64,000 nt of DNA, taken from NCBI RefSeq assembly GCF_000346465.2, contig NC_034016.1, forward strand, positions 905,481-969,480, written 5' to 3'. The notes beneath the pieces are model-generated. The model saw only the letters and a program-made list of their open reading frames with translations, had not been told where the DNA came from and did no database searches. The first letter of the stretch is position 1; each line of letters starts with the position of its first letter. A program made the translations under genes and the position numbers. The stretch comes from Prunus persica. Lineage: Eukaryota; Streptophyta; Magnoliopsida; Rosales; Rosaceae. This document shows positions 3,715 through 47,770 of the stretch, in pieces.

Positions 3715-4010
3715 CAAGGAAGAGCAATGGGAGACGAGAAAGATTTAGTTGATCTTAACAAGGAAGAGCAATGGGAGACGAGAAAGATTTAGTTGTTGGG
3801 AGACAAGAAAGATTTAGTTGATCTTAACAAGGAAGAGCAATGGGAGACAAGAAAGATTTAGTTGTTGGGAGACAAGAAAGGAAAGATTTAGTTGATCTTA
3901 ACAAGGAAGAGCAATGGGAGACAAGAAAGATTTAGTTGTTGGGAGACAAGAAAGATTTAGTTGATCTTAACAAGGAAGAGCAATGGGAGATAACAAAGAT
4001 TTAGTTTTGC
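3715..4010. repeat. Minisatellite grown from a dioxygenase 5' leader
   Basis: About four copies of a roughly 66-bp higher-order unit are present, made of the words AAGGAAGAGCAATGGGAGA, CAAGAAAGATTTAGTTG and ATCTTAACAA. The same words occur once at 16414-16463, in the 5' leader of dioxygenase B (minus strand). The array is therefore an expanded copy of that leader. Confidence 0.85.
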
Positions 4011-7180: not shown

Positions 7181-9670
7181 ATGTCTGGAACTCGAGCAAC
7201 TCCACTACTGCTTACTCAAAGTCAAAACCCTTGTTTTCAGTCCTCACAAAGTGTTTCAAGTACCAACGGCAGCATAAACTGCATTTCAGGACGTGACCAT
7301 GAATCATGTCATGTTCCAAATCCAATCATTGACTACTCCATGCTCAACTCCAATGATTGTCTCAAAAGGTCTCAAGCTATCAATGACCTCAATCAAGCTT
7401 GCCTCAACTATGGCTTCTTCGCAGTATCCACTTCTTCCTCCTTCCATTTGTCTCTATTTTCACTCCACTTAAATTGCCAACTAATCACGTTTTAGACCAT
7501 ATTAACTGATAACATGATACCTTAAGTTTATATACACTTATTACATACACAAACTATATGTATATGCATGTGCGCGCACACACACAGAGAGCTTCAATTG
7601 GAGGATCTCTCAAATAAGTATATTAAGAAACACTTTTGTAGCGCACATTATGCATTGTATTTCAATAATCCGAATCGTCTATTTCTTAAAACACCATGTT
7701 CATCTATTTTTTGGGTCAAAACTAGATGTCTTAATGATTTTCAATTTACTTGAATTTTTTGCAAGGATGATCACTGAATGATGACTTAAAAAATAAACGT
7801 TTTGATATTGTTTGAAGTAAAATTTGTAGTGGACCACACAACGTATCCCTCAAATAGTTTTTTTTTTTTTAAGGATCTCTCAATAGAATAGGACTAATGT
7901 ATAGAGAGCTTCAATGGACGAATCTCTCGAATAATTATTTGTGGGGCACCCTTTTAGTGCCCACTTCACACTTTATTTTAATGATTCGAACTATCTATTT
8001 TTTTAGGTGGTCTCTCAAATATCATTTTTGAAAAAAATACTTGAACAAGAGACCATTTAACAGAAACCACTCAATTAAATGGTTGTTATTTTTTGCATAG
8101 GAGAAAATCTGTATAGCAGTTCTTCTCATTCGGACGTCCGCACGTTATTACCATGCGGACGCCATTTAACTAAAAAGCCCTAGGTGTTTCTTGATAAAAA
8201 CGAATATATATTGCATTGGAAGAATGAGTCCGATTAACCATTTGGAATGTTTAATATCTCTTTCTGATGTTTGAGTGGCCTTGATGATTTTGTAGGTGAC
8301 AAATCATGGGATCCCAGATAGCTTGATTGGGAGTGTTATGAATTGGCTTTCCAAATTTTTTAATCAAAGTGATGAGGAGAAGCGAAGGTATGATACGAAT
8401 GATCCGACGGATAGGATCAGATTCAGGTGGGGCGGCAGAACCCAAAGAGAGCTTCTCCACATGAGGGCACATCCCACCTTCCATTGCCCAACAAAGCCTG
8501 CCGATTCCATGTAACCCTGCTTGTATCAAACCCATGCATTCATTCCCTTTCACACAAAGAAGCCACACACACACATATTTTCTTACTTATTACAATGTTG
8601 GCAGGGTTTTAACAGAGTATTGTGAGAGAATGCGAGAGATGGGAATGCAATTACTTAGAGGGATTTCAAAATCTCTAGGGCTTGAAGAATGCTACATAGA
8701 AAACAAAATGAAGCTGGAATCGGGCTACAACGTTTTTGGACCAAATTACTATCCAGCACTGTCGCAGTCCTCGGATGATAAGAATCAGATTGGCCAATTC
8801 CCTCATCGCGACCCTGGTTTACTTGTTCTCCTTGCACAAAACGTGGGTGGGGGGCTTCAGATAGAACATCAGAAGAAGTGGCTCAATGCAGATTTTCCTC
8901 CTAGTTCCATTTTTGTCATTGTTGCCGACCATATAGAGGTGCGTTTAAGATTCTCAAATTTTTTATTACTCTCCATAAAAACTAATCACATATGATTGGA
9001 TTAGGCTAAACACATAGATCAATTGTGTGTGATCATATTAGGCCCTGCAACGTTTGTCCTTCCCCCATGTTAAGATTAGGGTATCTAAGTCAATTGGCTT
9101 TGAGTTGAGAGGCTAATCATATTTTTATATTATAATGTACAGTTTTAAATATTCAACTTGAGGGTTTTATATTCTCAACTCAACACATGTTCAACTAACG
9201 CTTCGTCTTGTGGTACTTTACTTTTCAGTGTTAGAATAGGTTATAAGTTCGAATTGCCCCTTCCCAATTCATAAGAAAAAATGTTCTCAACACATGAGAT
9301 GTGTACGATCTGTAATATCACTAGCCTCATCTATATATTAGTTTTATTCACTAAAACGTTTGTGATAAATTTTCTTCTGAGGTAATTGGTCTGAGAACTT
9401 TTTGGGTTATAACATGATGCATGGCAGATTCTTACCAATGGAAAATACAAGAGCTTGTTGCATCGGGTGGCCTTAAACAGCGAAGTGGAAAGGATGAGTT
9501 TACCCTTCTTTTTTGGGCCATCGTTGGACGTAACTGTGAAGCCTGAACCAGAGTTTGTGGACGACCACAACCCACCCTCTTATCGTCAAATGACTTACAA
9601 AGCATACTTGGAATCCAATGACCACCATGTGATTGAAGCGAGAGCAAACTTGAATCAGATTCGACTCTGA
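7181..9670 (+). CDS. 2-oxoglutarate/Fe(II)-dependent dioxygenase A (intact, four exons)
   Basis: The predicted coding sequence is join(7181..7423, 8296..8510, 8605..8938, 9428..9670), 344 aa. All introns are GT/AG and the phases are consistent. The N-terminal DIOX_N part ends in LNQACLNYGFFA joined to VTNHGIP. The C-terminal 2OG-Fe(II) domain carries the iron ligands H220 and D222 (FPHRDPG) and H276 (LLHRV), and the 2-oxoglutarate-binding R286 and S288 (RMSLPFFFGP). These are the residues needed for this cytosolic oxidoreductase fold. Enzymes of this DOXC class hydroxylate or demethylate specialised metabolites or hormones; the substrate cannot be read from sequence. Start choice: the first ATG after a TATA box 120 bp upstream, matching the start of copy C. 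It is the best candidate in this window for a functional member of the A/C pair. Confidence 0.9.
9170..9275 (+). mobile_element. SINE-like piece in dioxygenase A intron 3
   Basis: The order CTTGTGGTACTTTACTTTTCAGTGTTAG then AAGTTCGAATTGCCCCTTCCC resembles the A-box/B-box order of the dispersed tRNA-derived family seen at 11.4, 18.7, 22.6 and 30.9 kb. It is degraded, so the assignment is tentative. Confidence 0.35.
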
Positions 9671-14018: not shown

Positions 14019-16391
14019 TTAAAGACGAATTTGTTCGATGCTAGATTGGACATCGATCTCATCGGAGCCATTAGCTTGTAAGGATTGCTTGTAGGTCATT
14101 CCACGATATGCAGGTGGGTGAGAGTCATCCACAAACTCTGGTGCTGGGCTCACAAATGCATCCAATGAAGGTCCATGAAGCGTAGCCACTGAGATCCTCT
14201 TCACTTTGTTGTTGTCCACAACCACTCGGTGAACATGGCTCTTGTATTTACCATTTGTCAATATCTAAATCAAGACAATTAGTAAGTACTAGGGAGCCTT
14301 CACTCCAGAATCATTTTGATGTTTTTTTTCTAGTTGGATGAATTCTCTACCGGTTATCCGAAAGAAAATTGTATTTCGCTCATAGTGAAGTTGATATAAT
14401 TTTCGTAGAGTGTTTGTATTTGTTAGTGATTAGGGAATTTATATTTAACAAAAACATCATCATGAAGATATAAGTAAAGATATAACAAACTATTAAGGGA
14501 TAGAGTTGTACCTCAAGATGGTCCCCAAGGTTTATAAAAATGGCATTAGGGGGCATATTGACTTTGATGCAGTTTCCATCATTGGAAAATACTTGTAGGC
14601 CACCATTCACATCTTGAATGAGTGAAACAAAGAAGCCAGGGTCAGTATGGTCAGGTACACCAATGGAACCTTTTGATCTGAAATTTGGAGGGTAGAGGTT
14701 CATGGCAGACACATCAAAGCCCGTTCCAAGCTTAAAAGCTTTTTCTATGTAGCATTCTTCAAATCCCAAGGCTTTTGACACTGCCTTTCCCAAACCCTGT
14801 ACTACCTCTCGCAAGCCCTTGAAATACTCTTCCATGGACTCACTGTTGAAAACAAAAACATTTACCTGGCACCATTAGAATATGCCCGACACCGCGGATC
14901 TTGACCATATTTATTCGTGTGATGTGAAGACAAGGATTAAAATATCTTACTTCTTGTGAAGATTCTTAGATGAGAGAAGGACAGAGAGACACAAATATCG
15001 TATGTTACACGACAAGAACGAGATTCGAATTTAAGAATTAAGAAATTTTTCAGCACACTGGATAGAAAAACCATTAGCCAAATATATGTGATTTTAGGGC
15101 ATGTTGATGGATTTTCCGTATATTGATTTACTTGAATAATAGAGAATATCTTAATATAGTAAATAAATTAAATCATATACCTGAAACCAGATGGTTTAGT
15201 AGGGCAGTGATACTGGGGATGCGCAATGATCTTGAGATATTCCCTATTCTCTCCAGGAGAAGATCGTAAGCCCCATCGAATTCTATTTGTTGGATTCTTT
15301 TTCTCGTACTGCTTTCGGCTCTCTATCTCCGTTGGATTAAAGAAATCAGAAATTCCTTTGAAAACACCCTCAAACACGCTATCGGATATGCCATGGTTTA
15401 CTAGCTGAAATGTAATGAGTTCAATACTTAATTCAGAGCATAACAATTTGTAAATCATAAAAATATTTATAAAAAAAACAATGAACATATTGCATGCCAA
15501 ATGAAGAAATGAAATGAAATATTTCATATGTTCAATGTCAAAGAAGATTTCAATTCCAGTTTAGGGAAATACTCTATATGGATCCACTTGGATTGATACT
15601 TCAGATCCAAGGTATGAAATCTAACTGAAACTTTACTAGTTCATATTTTCTCTAATATTTTTGCGTCATGTCGACTTGTATTAGAGTAAATCCGATCAAT
15701 TATGGAATTAATAGAAATCAACCTTTTAAGTTCATTTTTGAAGAGAAATAAGTAAGAAACTTAACTTGATACAAATATTGGAGATTTCTGGTTGAACTGT
15801 CTAACATAAAATGTTATGTTGTTAAACCATAATCGTCCCAAATTTAGACAAGAAAGCATTTCTTATAATATCGAACAAGACAAATTTTGCAAAATATATA
15901 ACACTATTTTTCTCAATCATATGCTATTTCCCCGATTGTAATATTGTTAAAATAGATATAAAAATATAGAACGTTCAGAATAAATTTTAAAAAAAAACAA
16001 TAAAATATTAAGGAAGCGAGTAAACCCTATTTGGTATTTTCATTTTATGATTAAACGTACGAAAGTAAAAAAATACAAAAAGGGAAGTTTTGGCATTAGT
16101 TAGGACATGTATAAAAGCATAGAAAAAGCCTGTCAAAACGAAAAGAAACAATCATACATAGAAGAAGCCAAAGTCCTTGCACACATGGCCTATGTATTCG
16201 AGGGCTTTGGATCGTTCATCGAGATCATCAGAGAATAACATGAAGTAATCGACGGTGGGGATCTCAACATCATCAACAACCGCAATGGAATCATGAGGTT
16301 TGATGATGGATGAGTCAATGGAGTGAAGGGAGAGGATAGGGTTTGGTTCAAAAGGCCTGTGGTTAACAAGAACTGGAGCTGTCTCAGCCAT
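14019..16391 (-). CDS. 2-oxoglutarate/Fe(II)-dependent dioxygenase B (intact, four exons)
   Basis: The coding sequence is complement(join(14019..14264, 14512..14842, 15181..15404, 16158..16391)), 344 aa, with GT/AG junctions in phases 0, 2 and 0, the same as dioxygenase A. The N-terminus is MAETAPVLVNHRPFEP. The DIOX_N domain runs to CKDFGFFY|LVNHGI. The catalytic domain shows H218 and D220 (VPDHTDPGF), H275 (SHVHRVVV) and the RIS arginine near residue 285. It differs clearly from A and C in sequence but keeps the exon plan, so they are ancient tandem relatives. A soluble oxidoreductase is expected; substrate unknown. The start is the first ATG downstream of a minus-strand TATAAAT about 110 bp away. 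Its promoter is partly duplicated at 4.0-5.3 kb. Confidence 0.9.
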
Positions 16392-21309: not shown

Positions 21310-22554
21310 TGGTGGCTTTGGGTTCTGATATTTGCATGCATTAAGCTTTTTTTCTTCTGAGTTTGTCAGTCTCATTTAGTCTCAACTAGCCTCTCTCTCT
21401 ATCTCCTTTTCTCACAACACACACAATGACTGGAACTGAAGCAACTCCACAACTGCTTACTCAAACTTGTTTTGGCCATGAGTCATGTGATGTTCAAACT
21501 CCAGTCATTGACTACTCCATGCTCATCTCCAATGTTTCTCTCAAAAGCTCTCAAGCTATCAATGACCTCAATCAAGCTTGCCTCAACTATGGCTTCTTCA
21601 CTGTATACCTACCTCTTCCTCCTTCCATTTGTCTCTACTTTTCACTCCACTAAAATTGCTAATTGATCACGTTTTTAGACTGCATTAGCTTGACCACATG
21701 ATTTATTACATACATATGTTGTATTATGAACATTAATGATGTTCTTACGTTTCAGTTTTATCAAACAAACTACGATTTTTTTTATTTTTTATTTTTGCAC
21801 ATTGACGATTCTGATCATTGAACTACATCGTTGAGTAGCCCTAAATAAAATACGCGTGCATTTTTCTCAAAATAAGGGCACTTTTATGTATGTATATGCA
21901 CGTATATTATCTCCTTACAAAGATCCCTTTTGATGAGTAGAAAAAATGGATCTCATTGTTGGAGTCATTCAACAATGTTCCTCCTTCAAAGGTTATTCCC
22001 CAAAAGAAAAATCATCCAAATCTAGAAGATTTTGATTATCTATAGTTCACTAATTTTTTTTTAATAAATAAATAAATAACTTGTTTCTTAATTATAAAAA
22101 TGAATATATTGCAGTATCTGGCACGTATAATATTTCTTTGTCAAGTTTGAGTGGTAGTGGCCTTGATGATTTGGCAGGTGACAAATCATGGGATCCCAGA
22201 TAGCCTGATAGGTAGTGTAACCAGTTGGCTTTCCAGATTTTTCCATCGGACGGACGAGGAGAAGCGACGGTATGCGAGAAATGATCCCACGGATAGAATC
22301 AGATTCATATTGGGCGGCGTAACCAAAAGAGAGCTTCTCCACATGAGGACACATCCCACTTTCCACTGCCCAACAATGCCTGACGATCGCATGTAAACCA
22401 CCTTCTATATTAAACGCAATCATTGGCTATGCATGAAGTAATTAATTCACTTTCCCACAACAAAAATGGGAGGTTCTCGAATAAGTATTTTATGATAAGA
22501 ATTAGTTACATACTTTTAATTTTAGTCATTAAAATATATTAATAGTTTCTTAAA

Positions 22555-22645
22555 TGCAAGACACCATAGAAGTTTGAATCTGAGATCATTAATTTGCAAA
22601 ATAAGGCTCTTTTCCATTTAGCTAGATCTCGTTGACACCTGCTTT
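22555..22645 (-). mobile_element. SINE-like piece in dioxygenase C intron 2
   Basis: On the minus strand GAGATCTAGCTAAATGGAAAAGAGCC..TTTGCAAATTAATGATCTCAGATTCAAAC carries the A-box/B-box order shared with the 11.4, 18.7 and 30.9 kb copies. Confidence 0.45.
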
Positions 22646-23194
22646 TCTAAACTTTATTTTACATATAGATTATTACTTCACTTACAGATCGATTTCATCT
22701 GCTTTAACAAATTTAATTATTATAAAACTAATAGTCGTATTTAGAAAAATTAGGTTACATAAAAGATGTTTGTATCTAGTTGATGTGATGCGTAGTCTTT
22801 GATGATACTTATCTTGGTAATTAAGACAATAACTTTATTCTTTCAAAAATGGTACAACAAATAGTTCTGATACTTTAATCTATGTTTAAACTTAATTACC
22901 TAACATGCAATAACAATTTTTGGTGTTTATACATGATGAAAGCAGGGTTTTGCAAAAGTATAGTGAGATAATGAGAGAGATGGGCATCCAATTGCTTAGA
23001 GGGATCTCAAAATCTCTGGGGCTTGAAGAATGCTACATGGAAAAGAAAATGAAGTTGGAATCTGGCTACAATATTTTGGGACCAAATTTCTATCAATCTT
23101 TGTCGCGTTGCTTGGATGATAAGAATCAGATTGGGCAGTTTCCTCATCGAGACCCTGGTTTGCTTGTGCTCATCGCACAAAACGTGGGTGGGGG

Positions 23195-24060
23195 CAGGGA
23201 CGGATCCAGGAATTTTTCCTCCGGGGGTCAACTTTTAAAAGGTTAAAAAAATTCTATACAAAATATACCCATAAATATTTTTATTATTAAGAAATCCTTT
23301 ATTCAAACTAAAGGTAACTAACCAAAATTAAACCTCCTTGGAAAAAAATAAAATAAAAAACCTCAACAACTAATCAAGAAAAACATCAATATTCATCCCA
23401 TAAAAATAAAACGATAAATTATCATTCATATATAATTCATTGAGAAAACAATTGAGAAAACACATTAAATCAAGTAACTTCCCCAGATGAGTCTTTCACA
23501 TGTGGGTTCACAAACTCTAAAAGCAGAACAGTTGTTTGGATGGCTAACAGAGACAAAACTGTCAATAGCCTTGGCGCCAGAGTTTCGCTTCGAAAAGATG
23601 GCTCATTGGTCTTGAGACCGATGTGGATGGCGCAACTGTCTGGCAGACCAGCACCAACTCCAGTAGTCTTGATGTTGAGAGAGCAGAGCTTTTGAATTCT
23701 GGCAACCTTGTTCTGAAAGATGCACATGGTAAAATTCGATGGCAAAGCTTTGATTTTCCCAATGACACTGTTCTCCCAAACCACCCTTTGCAAAGAGCAA
23801 GAAGCTGATATCCAGCTGATATCCACTTTAGGAAGAGGGACTTTTGGACGAAAAAAAGGAAGCGCTCTGCGTGCACTCCTTCTTGCTGCGCTGAAGTTGA
23901 AGTTGCTGCAACCCTTTGAGGCATTTCCTCGAACAGATGGCGGGCATGAATTGCCCAGCCATCCAGCCATTGCAGGGGTCAATTTTTCTTCCTCTAGTGG
24001 CGGATTCTGGAGTTGCAGGGGTCAATTGACCACCCTTGCTCCTCTGTGGATCCGTCCCTG
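23195..24060. mobile_element. hAT-like element with captured receptor-kinase fragment (Pack-type)
   Basis: The ends are CAGGGACGGATCCA and its perfect inverse TGGATCCGTCCCTG. The 8-bp GGTGGGGG flanks the insert at 23187-23194 and 24061-24068; deleting one copy plus the insert restores the dioxygenase frame exactly. Perfect 8-bp duplications and CAGGG ends fit the hAT superfamily. There is no transposase. The interior from about 23520 to 23815 is a fragment of a G-type lectin receptor kinase gene, so this is a gene-capturing non-autonomous transposon. Confidence 0.9.
23520..23815 (+). pseudogene. Captured G-type lectin S-receptor-like kinase fragment
   Basis: The first part reads WMANRDKTVNSLGARVSLRK then DGSLVL. 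After a 2-bp frame slip (GTCTTGAGACC) it reads TDVDGATVWQTSTNSSSLDV, then ERAELLNSGNLVLKD, then HGKIRWQSFDFPNDTVLPN. This matches the bulb-type (D-mannose) lectin domain of S-domain receptor kinases, including the hallmark NGNLVL/WQSFD..DT.LP region. Only about 95 residues are present, with no S-locus, PAN or kinase segment. It is carried inside the hAT-like element and is in the same orientation as the host gene. Confidence 0.85.
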
Positions 24061-24814
24061 GGTGGGGGGCTTCAGATAAAGCACCAAGGGAAGTGGCTCA
24101 ATGCAGATTTTCCTCCTAGTTCCATTGGTGTCCTTGTTGCTGACCATATAGAGGTTGGTGCATTTCAATACATTTCTCAAATTTTCAATTCTTCTCCACA
24201 AAAATCTAATCATCTTGCCAAGTTTTTTTCTCTTTTGCACATTATATATCTTTAATACTAGGTTTAAGGAAAATGCTATACTTCAATATTGTCAGCAACT
24301 TTCTCTATGCTAGCGGTGTTTAACCCAAAACTAATTAATCATATATGTATAACCGAAAACTAATTAATCATATACGTGTATACAGACTAAGCGAGATACT
24401 TAAATAAGTTATATTGGATGACTTGAAGTACATGTGACAAAATTCAGTCCGTCACTTATAAAAGTTGAATATTTTCCATTTTAACCTTTAAAAACAGCTC
24501 CTATTTGTTTCGTTTGTTAAAATTCCTATGCCATATTTAATTTGTAATTAATTTGTGGTTTGCAGATTCTTACCAATGGGAAGTACAAGAGCTTGTTGCA
24601 TCGGGTGGCTTTAAACACAGAAGTGGAAAGGTTGAGTTTACCCTTCTTCTTTGGACCATCATTGGACGCAATTGTGAAGCCTGAACCAGAGTTTGTAGAC
24701 GACCACAACCCACCCTCTTATCGTCAAATGACTTACAAAGAATACTTGGAATCCAATTCTCGGTACCATGTGATCGAAGCAAAAGCAAACTTGATCAATG
24801 AGGCTCTGCTCTAG

Positions 24815-45639: not shown

Positions 45640-46630
45640 TATCTTAGAGAAAGAAAAGCATACAACTTTCAGAGAATCAGTTCACTTTTTGAATTTGACA
45701 TATGCCAATAGCTTCATAGTGAATTTAGACATACCAATAGCTTTAGTCTATTTAATGCTGTCCCAGATCAAGCATTTAGCCAATCCTATATGAAATATTA
45801 ATATAGCTTACAAGTCCACACACAATTGGTTTTCTATATTTAGAGTGAAATCCAACTAACCAACCAATGCTTGCAGCAGATTGATAGAATTAACACTTTC
45901 CTTGGCATAATTGATCTCTAGGTAGTAACTTATGATTGCATTTCATTGATGTAGTTCCTGGTAACTTTTTACATAACAGGTTTATTTGTTTGGCAAAACA
46001 GTCCATTCCAGATTCAATAGCAGGACTTGAGAAACTCAAGCAGCTCCATGTTTTGTGTTATCTTTTAGTTTCCTTGCCCAACTCCGTCGGATTGTTGCTT
46101 AACCTGAGGGTCCTCAATGTGTCAGGAAACAAGCTGGATGCCCTTCCTAAAAGCATTGCTCGTTGTAGGTAACGTCTCAAATTTTCTTTTTCGACTTGTC
46201 CCATCTGTTCTTCATGTGTTCTGTTCTTGGTGAGTAATGTTTCCTTCCTTTCCTGCAATTCTCACTTTGTGACTGTTTTCAAAACAACTTTTTCGACTCA
46301 ATATACTGGTGGAGCTAGATGCAAGCTTTAACAACCTGATGTGTTTGCCAACAAATATTGGTTATGGGCTACTGAATCTCGAAAGGCTCTCAATCCACTT
46401 GAATAAAATCCGTTCCCTTCCTCCATCCATCTGTGAAATGAGGTCACAGATATCTAGATGTTCATTTCAATGAGCTTCGTGGGCTGCCATATGCAATTGG
46501 GAGATTGACGACTCATGAGGTGCTCAACCTGTCCAGCAACTTCAGTGACTTGACAGAGCTTCCTGAATCAATTGGCGATCAAACCAATCTCAGGGAGCTT
46601 GATCTAAGAAACAACCAGATTCGAGCTCTC
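44995..46630 (+). pseudogene. PIRL (plant intracellular Ras-group LRR) pseudogene
   Basis: Recognisable blocks appear in order but in several frames. QLPHLNHPKVLTSMTHLI and LRPPPDPSTVARAKIAAI are followed by a TAG. Next come AAEKELEIYKAVVRLEEMHE and VNKLNEEVVRILEAESGVAV then KRVELSGSHLRCL (45240-45530). After a (CT)n tract and a gap follow IPDSIAGLEKL, VSLPNSVGLLLNLRVLNVSG then NKLDALPKSIARCR (46003-46170). Beyond an intron remnant lie [24 protein letters not shown], [14 protein letters not shown] (46310-46440), then after a frameshift [20 protein letters not shown] and [14 protein letters not shown]. This is the PIRL1/3/9-type layout (N-terminal helix region plus LRRs). Stops and frameshifts make it dead. 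It ends abruptly at a dioxygenase fragment. Confidence 0.8.
45591..45634. repeat. (CT)n microsatellite inside the PIRL pseudogene
   Basis: About 22 CT units interrupt the region where the first LRR should be. Confidence 0.95.
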
Positions 46631-47770
46631 ACAAGCTTGTGAAGAGTATGGATTTTTCCAGATCATCAACCATGGAGTGCCTGAGGAGTTATGTTATATA
46701 ATGATGGCTGCCATGACCCAGTTCTTCAAATTGCCTGCCAAAGAAAGAGCACAATACTTTACCACAGATCACTCCAAGCCAATAAAGCTTTTCAACTACT
46801 ACCTCAAGCTTGAAGGTGATCAACATCAAAAGGTCACTATGTGGAGTGAAACCTTCTCTCATCTCTGGCAACCTCTCAATTCTTTGCCTGAAATCCTCCC
46901 CAATACCGGTACTCTTTTCTTATAAACTTTAACACTTGAGCTTATTTTGTAGTTTGTGCCCATTTTTATGTTTGGGTTTTTGGTTTTAGTGAGGTTTTTG
47001 CTGAATGTGAAAAGGAGATTGGTGCATTGGTGAAAAGGCTTTTGGGATTGATATCCCAAGGGCTTGGCCCAGAGGAGGACTGCTTACAGAAGAAATTGGG
47101 TGAGAATCCTACTCAAAAAGCACAAGGAAACTACTATCCACCATGTCCTGACCCTGAGCTCACACTTGGACTATCTGTCCATACTGATCTCAATGCCCTC
47201 ACAATACTTAGGCAAACAGAGGGAGTGACTGGCCTTCAAGTACTGATCAAAGATGAGAAATGGGTTGCTGTTGATCCTCTCCCAAGTGCCTCTGTCATCA
47301 ATCTAGGTGACTGATTTCCACTTTCATCCATGTTGTTTAAATTTGGTCAATTGTGCTCTTGTAGTTTCATAATTGTAGCAATTCAAGGAGAAGTCATAAT
47401 TTCCGTCAATTTCTTTCACGAAGTCACCTCCACGTGCACCTCACGTAGAGGAGTAAACTATAGGGACCAAAAATGACTTTCATTGAAATTTGATTTGAAT
47501 TTGTGTATCTTGTACGTAGGTTTTGAGTAATGGAAGGTATAAGAGCGTGCACCACAGGGCAGTGACCAACAAAGTTGAGCCAAGGTTGTCAATAGCAATG
47601 TTCTACGGACCTAGCAAGGACACGGTGATTGGTCCAACTGAGGATTTGATTGACGAGGAACACCCTCCATTGTACCGGAGTTATAAGTATGCAGAGTTTT
47701 TTTGAAGAATTCTACAAGCAAGAAGGAAAAAGAAGATTGGTCAAGGAAGCTTTTGAGTTGCACAATTGAT
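46631..47770 (+). pseudogene. 5'-truncated 2OG/Fe(II) dioxygenase D pseudogene
   Basis: The exons are about 46631..46908, 46990..47314 and 47520 to about 47769. The first begins in mid-domain with [19 protein letters not shown], directly after PIRL sequence. Exon 2 carries NYYPPCP and the HTD iron ligands (SVHTDLNALT). Exon 3 carries HHRAVTN and the PRLSIAMFYGP arginine/serine pair. Lesions: the exon 1 end appears one base short (GAAATCC before the donor puts the next exon out of frame). The exon 2 end reads NLGD then TGA where a short QIQ-like segment and donor are expected. A T7 run at about 47697-47703 breaks the final EEFYKQEGKRR tail. The family resembles the hyoscyamine 6-dioxygenase/DMR6-like group and is clearly distinct from A-C. 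Confidence 0.8.

What the first reader, a model, noticed from the sequence alone, without database searches (positions are those of the whole stretch)
23187..24068. Gene-capturing hAT element sits in a dioxygenase exon with a perfect 8-bp duplication
Seen directly: TIRs CAGGGACGGATCCA/TGGATCCGTCCCTG, duplicated GGTGGGGG, and exact restoration of the exon frame and length (334 nt, as in the paralogue) when insert and one duplication are removed. The insert carries about 300 bp of a G-type lectin receptor kinase. Known: Pack-type transduplication is best described for MULEs; hAT cases are fewer. Here a captured immune-receptor-like fragment has been delivered in sense orientation into an expressed-type enzyme gene, so a chimeric or regulatory transcript is possible.
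Basis: partly seen in the sequence, partly recalled or inferred. Interest (0 to 1): 0.75.

Follow-up and report, generated by a model that had tools for sequence, protein, structure and literature searches.

The report
Gene-carrying transposon inside peach dioxygenase exon
A young peach jumping-gene family that picked up a scrap of a receptor-kinase gene has landed in an exon of an enzyme gene, and the public gene model treats most of it as an intron while reading its last 63 bases as protein; a neat new example of a known process.

Summary
The window is peach chromosome 8 (gene PRUPE_8G011300). An 866-bp non-autonomous hAT element (23195-24060; 14-bp perfect TIRs, 8-bp duplication) interrupts exon 3 of a 2-oxoglutarate dioxygenase gene. 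It is one of eight full-length copies found; the other seven are 97.1-99.7% identical to it and all eight have perfect 8-bp duplications. Three 3.45-kb elements with nearly the same TIRs keep a 797-aa ORF (hAT transposase). The likely donor is an intact G-type lectin receptor kinase gene on chromosome 6: 373 bp captured, with a 37-bp deletion at a 5-bp microhomology and further indels, so the fragment's frame is broken. The element is a mosaic: its 3' arm differs by 1.4% from the closest sister elements, its 5' arm by 12-16%.

Other Prunus proteins show the empty site. Unspliced, translation stops about 16 codons into the insert. I favour a recently broken allele with possible splice rescue; expression and splicing are untested here. 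Kind: Pack-hAT, already reported in grapevine, maize and rice.

The parts
23195..24060 (+). 866-bp non-autonomous hAT element carrying a gene fragment
   Evidence: TIRs; 8 full-length copies with duplications
23187..23194 (.). target site duplication, left (GGTGGGGG)
24061..24068 (.). target site duplication, right (GGTGGGGG)
23195..23208 (+). 5' terminal inverted repeat
24047..24060 (-). 3' terminal inverted repeat
23195..23474 (+). 5' transposon arm, 11.9-16.5% different from seven sister arms
23475..23847 (+). captured fragment of a G-type lectin receptor kinase gene (likely donor C6:25282193-25284625); internal 37-bp deletion at GGTTC, about 23505-23509
23803..23824 (+). 11-bp tandem duplication found in 4 of 8 copies, absent from the donor
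23848..24060 (+). 3' transposon arm, 1.4% different from sister elements L022-L024
23184..23997 (+). 814-nt intron implied by the deposited model PRUPE_8G011300
   Evidence: the spliced sequence translates letter for letter into P0006; use in vivo not tested
23998..24060 (+). 63 nt (21 codons) of hAT 3' arm and TIR read as exon in that model
21426..24814 (+). host 2-oxoglutarate/Fe(II) dioxygenase gene; exons by my reading 21426-21602, 22178-22392, 22946-24153 (holds the insert), 24566-24814
7181..9652 (+). uninterrupted paralogue, 55-85% identical by segment

Best explanation
A non-autonomous Pack-type hAT element inserted recently into exon 3 of a peach dioxygenase gene. It was probably moved in trans by a transposase of the kind encoded by the 3.45-kb elements with nearly the same TIRs (inferred). 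Earlier, an ancestor of this family acquired a stretch of the lectin-coding part of a receptor kinase gene, most likely the one now on chromosome 6, between two transposon arms of different history, with a 37-bp deletion at a 5-bp microhomology (structure shown). Junctions with almost no shared bases suggest end-joining repair of a broken intermediate (inferred). The result spread to at least eight sites. In the dioxygenase gene the insert shifts the frame and brings a stop about 16 codons in, so an unspliced transcript loses the second half of the catalytic core. The likely state is a loss-of-function or weak allele. A strong-looking acceptor in the hAT 3' arm could restore the frame with a 20-residue longer, TE-derived loop, as in the deposited model; whether this happens is unproven.
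For: Perfect TIRs and duplication. Eight copies, other seven 97.1-99.7% identical to this one, 8 of 8 with perfect duplications. No private substitution in the window copy, against 0-4 in the other seven. Three elements of 3454-3456 bp with perfect 8-bp duplications and a 797-aa ORF each; the L019 ORF matches DUF4371 and Dimer_Tnp_hAT. Donor-like locus an intact 810-aa lectin kinase ORF; 316 of 330 ungapped sites agree in the main block and 34 of 35 in the small one. Arms with unequal divergence. Stop at 23244 when read through. Uninterrupted site in proteins P0001, P0005, P0026 and P0030.
Against: The deposited model avoids the stop by splicing, and peach v2.1a annotation is said to have used much RNA-seq, so the allele may not be null. 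The transposase elements share only terminal stretches (86.9% over 84 bp, 88.2% over 93) and differ at one base of the 3' TIR, so trans-mobilisation is not shown. Donor and fragment differ by 3.9%, so the true donor could be a lost relative. Two further Prunus models, almond P0012 and apricot P0025, do not read cleanly through the site.
Confidence: 0.78

Rival explanations
1. The element works as a new intron: splicing at 23184-23997 gives a functional 344-aa dioxygenase in which 21 TE codons replace one residue at the turn between two core strands.
For: The deposited protein equals this splice form over its 202 residues. The acceptor scores best of 55 AGs and the pair ranks first of 24 frame-restoring pairs among 505 tried, by a crude score of my own. 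With exons 1-2 the frame stays open. In the model of P0001 the site is a loop between strands 173-178 and 184-188, mean pLDDT 83.7.
Against: A gene finder would choose the same pair, so the model is no independent proof. The donor site ranks only fourth of 37, tied with two others. The deposited model lacks exons 1-2 and starts at an internal ATG (22980) although an in-frame ATG lies 9 nt upstream. The predicted structure of P0006 is poor, mean pLDDT 45.6, though the missing N-terminus alone may explain it.
Confidence: 0.18
2. The capture arose by fusion of neighbouring insertions: two family elements flanked the kinase fragment, the outer termini were used together and the inner ends were lost (Pack-TYPE model of Catoni and colleagues), rather than by repair with template switching.
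For: Arms of unequal divergence. Sister elements L022-L026 have a degenerate inner terminus 182 bp (185 in L026) inside the outer one. Two family termini lie 11 bp apart in tandem at L038. A family terminus lies 68 kb from the donor.
Against: No element insertion seen next to the donor within the 9.9 kb of L016. The 68-kb neighbour is expected by chance in about 6% of cases. The unequal arms could also come from gene conversion.
Confidence: 0.35
3. The insert is an assembly error that placed a repeat copy in the gene.
For: The copies are nearly identical, which can confuse assemblers.
Against: Perfect 8-bp duplication of the exon sequence at the junctions, as an insertion by this superfamily predicts; the deposited protein is built on the same 3' junction.
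Confidence: 0.02

Closest known systems
Pack-hAT elements of maize and rice (Gisby and Catoni 2022, PMC8903248; abstract, passages and section 9 seen)
   Same: Non-autonomous hAT with a host gene fragment inside. One maize Pack-hAT extends an exon and gives a new splice donor; transcripts merging TE and gene exons are reported for three of their four examples.
   Different: Peach was not surveyed there (no occurrence of Prunus). Here the element is in the middle of a coding exon and supplies an acceptor; the captured gene piece is in the modelled intron.
Hatvine-6 of grapevine (PMC2528002, passages)
   Same: hAT with transduplicated genic sequence
   Different: Its members share a transposase coding sequence and TIRs with a variable rest; here one captured fragment is shared by eight small elements without transposase.
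Maize Ds2 and Ds-l4 elements with gene fragments (PMC3260210, passages)
   Same: hAT elements of about 1 kb with captured gene pieces and donors identified in a few cases; capture by break repair suggested there
   Different: Single elements are described in the passages seen; here the capture is amplified to eight copies in two subfamilies.
Ds1 exonisation (PMC5432752, passages)
   Same: hAT termini that supply splice sites close to the end of the element
   Different: Ds1 acceptors lie 24 nt or less from the end; here the acceptor is 63 nt from the end and comes from an unrelated arm.
mMoshan hAT MITEs of Prunus (review PMC13359793, passages)
   Same: Small non-autonomous hATs found in coding exons in peach and sour cherry
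   Different: 588-615 bp and not described in those passages as carrying genes; no Moshan sequence was available to compare.

Membership tests
hAT superfamily | 8-bp target site duplication | tested here: met
   8 of 8 lectin copies and 3 of 3 long elements; among the six sister elements 5 of 6 (L026 has 6 of 8 bases alike)
hAT superfamily | short terminal inverted repeats | tested here: met
   14 of 14 complementary
hAT superfamily | related elements encode an hAT transposase | tested here: met
   797-aa ORF in 3 of 3 long elements; L019 matches PF05699 at 26.4 bits, cut-off 21.4, and PF14291 at 285 bits. That it moves this element was not tested.
Pack-TYPE element | carries a host gene fragment whose source lies elsewhere in the genome | tested here: met
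Pack-TYPE element | non-autonomous, no transposase of its own | tested here: met
   866 bp, and the exon-frame and other forward frames are broken by stops
Pack-TYPE element | mobilised after capture | tested here: met
   eight copies share the same fragment and 37-bp deletion at eight sites
exonised transposon | TE sequence in a mature transcript | not testable with these tools
   only a deposited gene model; no RNA data held
Moshan (Rosaceae hAT) | Moshan termini | not tested
   no Moshan sequence was seen in the passages of PMC13359793

The most novel reading that the evidence does not exclude
The 3' arm of this hAT family is a portable splice acceptor followed by 63 nt with two of three frames free of stops, so that a sense insertion into an exon can be turned into an intron at once. 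In peach this has produced a working dioxygenase with a 20-residue longer, transposon-encoded loop, while the captured receptor-kinase piece rides along in the new intron.
Probability: 0.12. Interest if true: 0.55.

Novelty: new member of a known kind. Interest (0 to 1): 0.4.

Why it matters
A hAT gene capture with its likely donor, its junctions, sister elements, transposase-bearing relatives and a young host-exon insertion all in one genome is a clean case for asking how hATs pick up genes and whether exon insertions are rescued by splice sites in the element. It also warns that a public peach protein contains 21 codons of transposon.

Tried and rejected
Rejected: assembly error (perfect duplication at the junctions). 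Rejected: a lectin-domain chimera by read-through (stop at 23244; fragment frame broken). Rejected: exact removal of the insert as an intron; GGTGGGGG and the adjoining end hold no AG that would restore the empty-site sequence. Sister elements L022-L026: I asked whether their different middle (541 bp) is a second capture; 14 matches from 13 of 13 candidates, mostly family members, one (L030) without recognised termini; no gene source found, origin not settled. L029 was tried as an autonomous partner: three ORFs of 100 aa or more in the stretch asked for, longest 302 aa, not scanned for domains. Structure test: P0006 gave mean pLDDT 45.6, P0001 83.7; not a fair comparison because P0006 lacks its N-terminus. 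Almond P0012 has an altered frame upstream and skips the site; at an empty site that would need a 44-nt intron (my count), so almond may or may not carry the insert. Apricot P0025 jumps from the residue at the site to exon 4 and does not show it. Paper search for '8G011300': 12 papers, none on peach by title.

Full report
Where it is. The window is G000:C8:905481-969480 in a 227.5-Mb genome of 192 contigs. The deposited protein PRUPE_8G011300 of Prunus persica sits on a contig of 22,573,980 bases, the length of our contig C8, and can be translated from this window, so the window is peach chromosome 8.

The insertion. The element is 866 bp with 14-bp perfect TIRs and an 8-bp duplication. It splits exon 3 (22946-24153). 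Without insert and one duplication the exon is 334 nt and open, the same length as in the paralogue at 7181-9652 (the script printed 335 because it began one base early). The host protein, read without the insert, has DIOX_N and 2OG-FeII_Oxy domains. The insert lies between the HxD motif and the distal histidine (motif roles recalled).

The family. The genome search (40 of 171 candidates scored) gave eight full-length copies; the other seven are 97.1-99.7% identical to this one, and 8 of 8 have perfect 8-bp duplications. A second search with the lectin part alone, all 12 of 12 candidates scored, found the same eight. There are two subfamilies: the window copy, L009, L010 and L011 have an 11-bp tandem duplication; L012-L015 lack it, as does the donor. 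The window copy has no private substitution; the other seven have 0-4. With a recalled peach mutation rate of 7.7e-9 per site this gives an upper bound of roughly 0.45 million generations, a rough figure. By a joined-flank ORF test the window copy is the only one of eight seen in a recognisable coding exon. The other copies had seven spanning ORFs of 50 aa or more; six were scanned with Pfam (a 57-aa one at L013 was left out) and gave one sub-threshold match at L010 (18.8 bits, cut-off 26.6), which I treat as chance. L014 and L015 had none. Introns were not modelled, so short exons could be missed.

Transposase-bearing relatives. L019, L020 and L021 are 3454-3456 bp; L019 is 99.5% and 98.9% identical to the other two. 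All three have perfect 8-bp duplications and the same 5' terminus; their 3' terminus differs from the lectin family at one base of the TIR. All three keep a 797-aa ORF; the L019 one was scanned and matches DUF4371 and Dimer_Tnp_hAT. With the window element they share terminal stretches, 86.9% over 84 bp and 88.2% over 93 bp, and a few short matches. A DNA search with L019 gave 179 matching stretches from 40 of 498 candidates scored, so the wider family is large. A protein search scored 7976 candidates, 2803 passed, 120 were listed, from Prunus, Malus and many other plants.

The donor. Besides the eight copies the lectin part hits one locus at 92% on chromosome 6, two chromosome-5 relatives at 79-81% and a 52-nt stretch on chromosome 4. 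The chromosome-6 locus is an intact 810-aa ORF with B_lectin, S_locus_glycop, PAN_2 and kinase matches above cut-off. In the main block 316 of 330 ungapped sites agree, in the small block 34 of 35. Against the older-type copy L012 the distance in the main block is 3.9%. With the chromosome-5 relatives as outgroups 7 changes fall on the element side, 5 on the donor side and 3 are ambiguous, one of these polymorphic among copies. Capture therefore looks older than the present copies, or the true donor is a lost relative.

The capture. The element skips 37 donor bases at the shared pentamer GGTTC. The 5' junction has one filler base and the 3' junction one base of overlap (my reading of the letters). 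The 3' arm (214 bp) of the window copy differs from L022, L023 and L024 at 1.4%, three substitutions within six bases, from L025 and L026 at 2.3% and 1.9% and from L027 at 7.9%. The 5' arm differs from seven sister arms at 11.9-16.5%. So the arms have different ancestry, or one was converted. L022-L026 have a second, degenerate terminus about 182 bp inside the outer one, and L022's outer 60 bp are 96.7% identical to L019. This resembles the fusion structure of Gisby and Catoni (section 9 read). I cannot tell fusion from repair with template switching. The nearest family terminus to the donor is 68 kb away, expected by chance in about 6% of cases.

What it does to the gene. Read straight through, the frame meets a stop at 23244, about 16 codons past the insertion point. 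The deposited 202-aa protein instead equals, letter for letter, the product of an intron from 23184 to 23997 followed by 21 codons of hAT 3' arm. The acceptor TTCTTCCTCTAG is present in the 8 lectin copies and the 6 sister elements shown, and absent from the 3 long ones. By a crude score of my own the pair ranks first of 24 frame-restoring pairs among 505; the acceptor is best of 55, the donor fourth of 37 with two ties. This does not show splicing, since a gene finder would choose the same pair. The model also starts at an internal ATG and lacks exons 1-2, although those exons are open. [quoted passage not shown] I do not know whether any reads support this gene. The tail peptide occurs in 1 of 177 proteins held, P0006 itself; 120 of the 177 are transposase relatives.

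Empty site. Proteins of P. speciosa (P0001) and P. armeniaca (P0005) run QNVGGGLQIK without interruption, as do P0026 (P. yedoensis) and P0030 (unnamed). The almond model P0012 and a second apricot model, P0025, do not read cleanly through the site. In the predicted structure of P0001 the site is a loop between two strands, where an extra loop might be tolerated (inference). The structure of P0006 was too poor to use.

Comparison. hAT gene capture is reported in grapevine (PMC2528002, passages), in maize Ds (PMC3260210, passages) and in maize and rice (PMC8903248, abstract, passages and one section). hAT splice sites are reported for Ds1 (PMC5432752, passages). hAT MITEs in peach exons are listed in a review (PMC13359793, passages). 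A review of gene capture (PMC13317346) was searched for passages only; it had no hAT mention by that term. In the listings of my searches I saw no report of this family; the library is limited and most of those papers were not opened. Verdict: a well documented new member of a known kind.

Noticed in passing
window 7181-9652 (+), 14070-16271 (-), 21426-24814 (+), 46623-47702 (+): Four dioxygenase-like genes or parts in one 64-kb window; the one at 46623 shows only two matching stretches at 35-41% identity.
   Followed up: partly
L038:2714-3823 and 3835-3920: A family element with a perfect AAGAGTAC duplication is followed 11 bp later by a second family 5' terminus in the same orientation, the tandem arrangement that the fusion model of gene capture starts from.
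   Followed up: partly
L022-L026: Sister elements have a degenerate inner 5' terminus and a newer outer one about 182 bp further out, as if a dead end had been replaced.
   Followed up: partly
protein P0071 (Prunus dulcis): A protein named disease resistance TIR-NBS-LRR class carries hAT transposase domains and is 67% identical to the L019 transposase; the name looks wrong.
   Followed up: no
protein P0012 (Prunus dulcis L3X38_040915): The almond orthologue model is frame-altered upstream of the site and skips it; at an empty site that would need a 44-nt intron, so the almond locus deserves a look.
   Followed up: no
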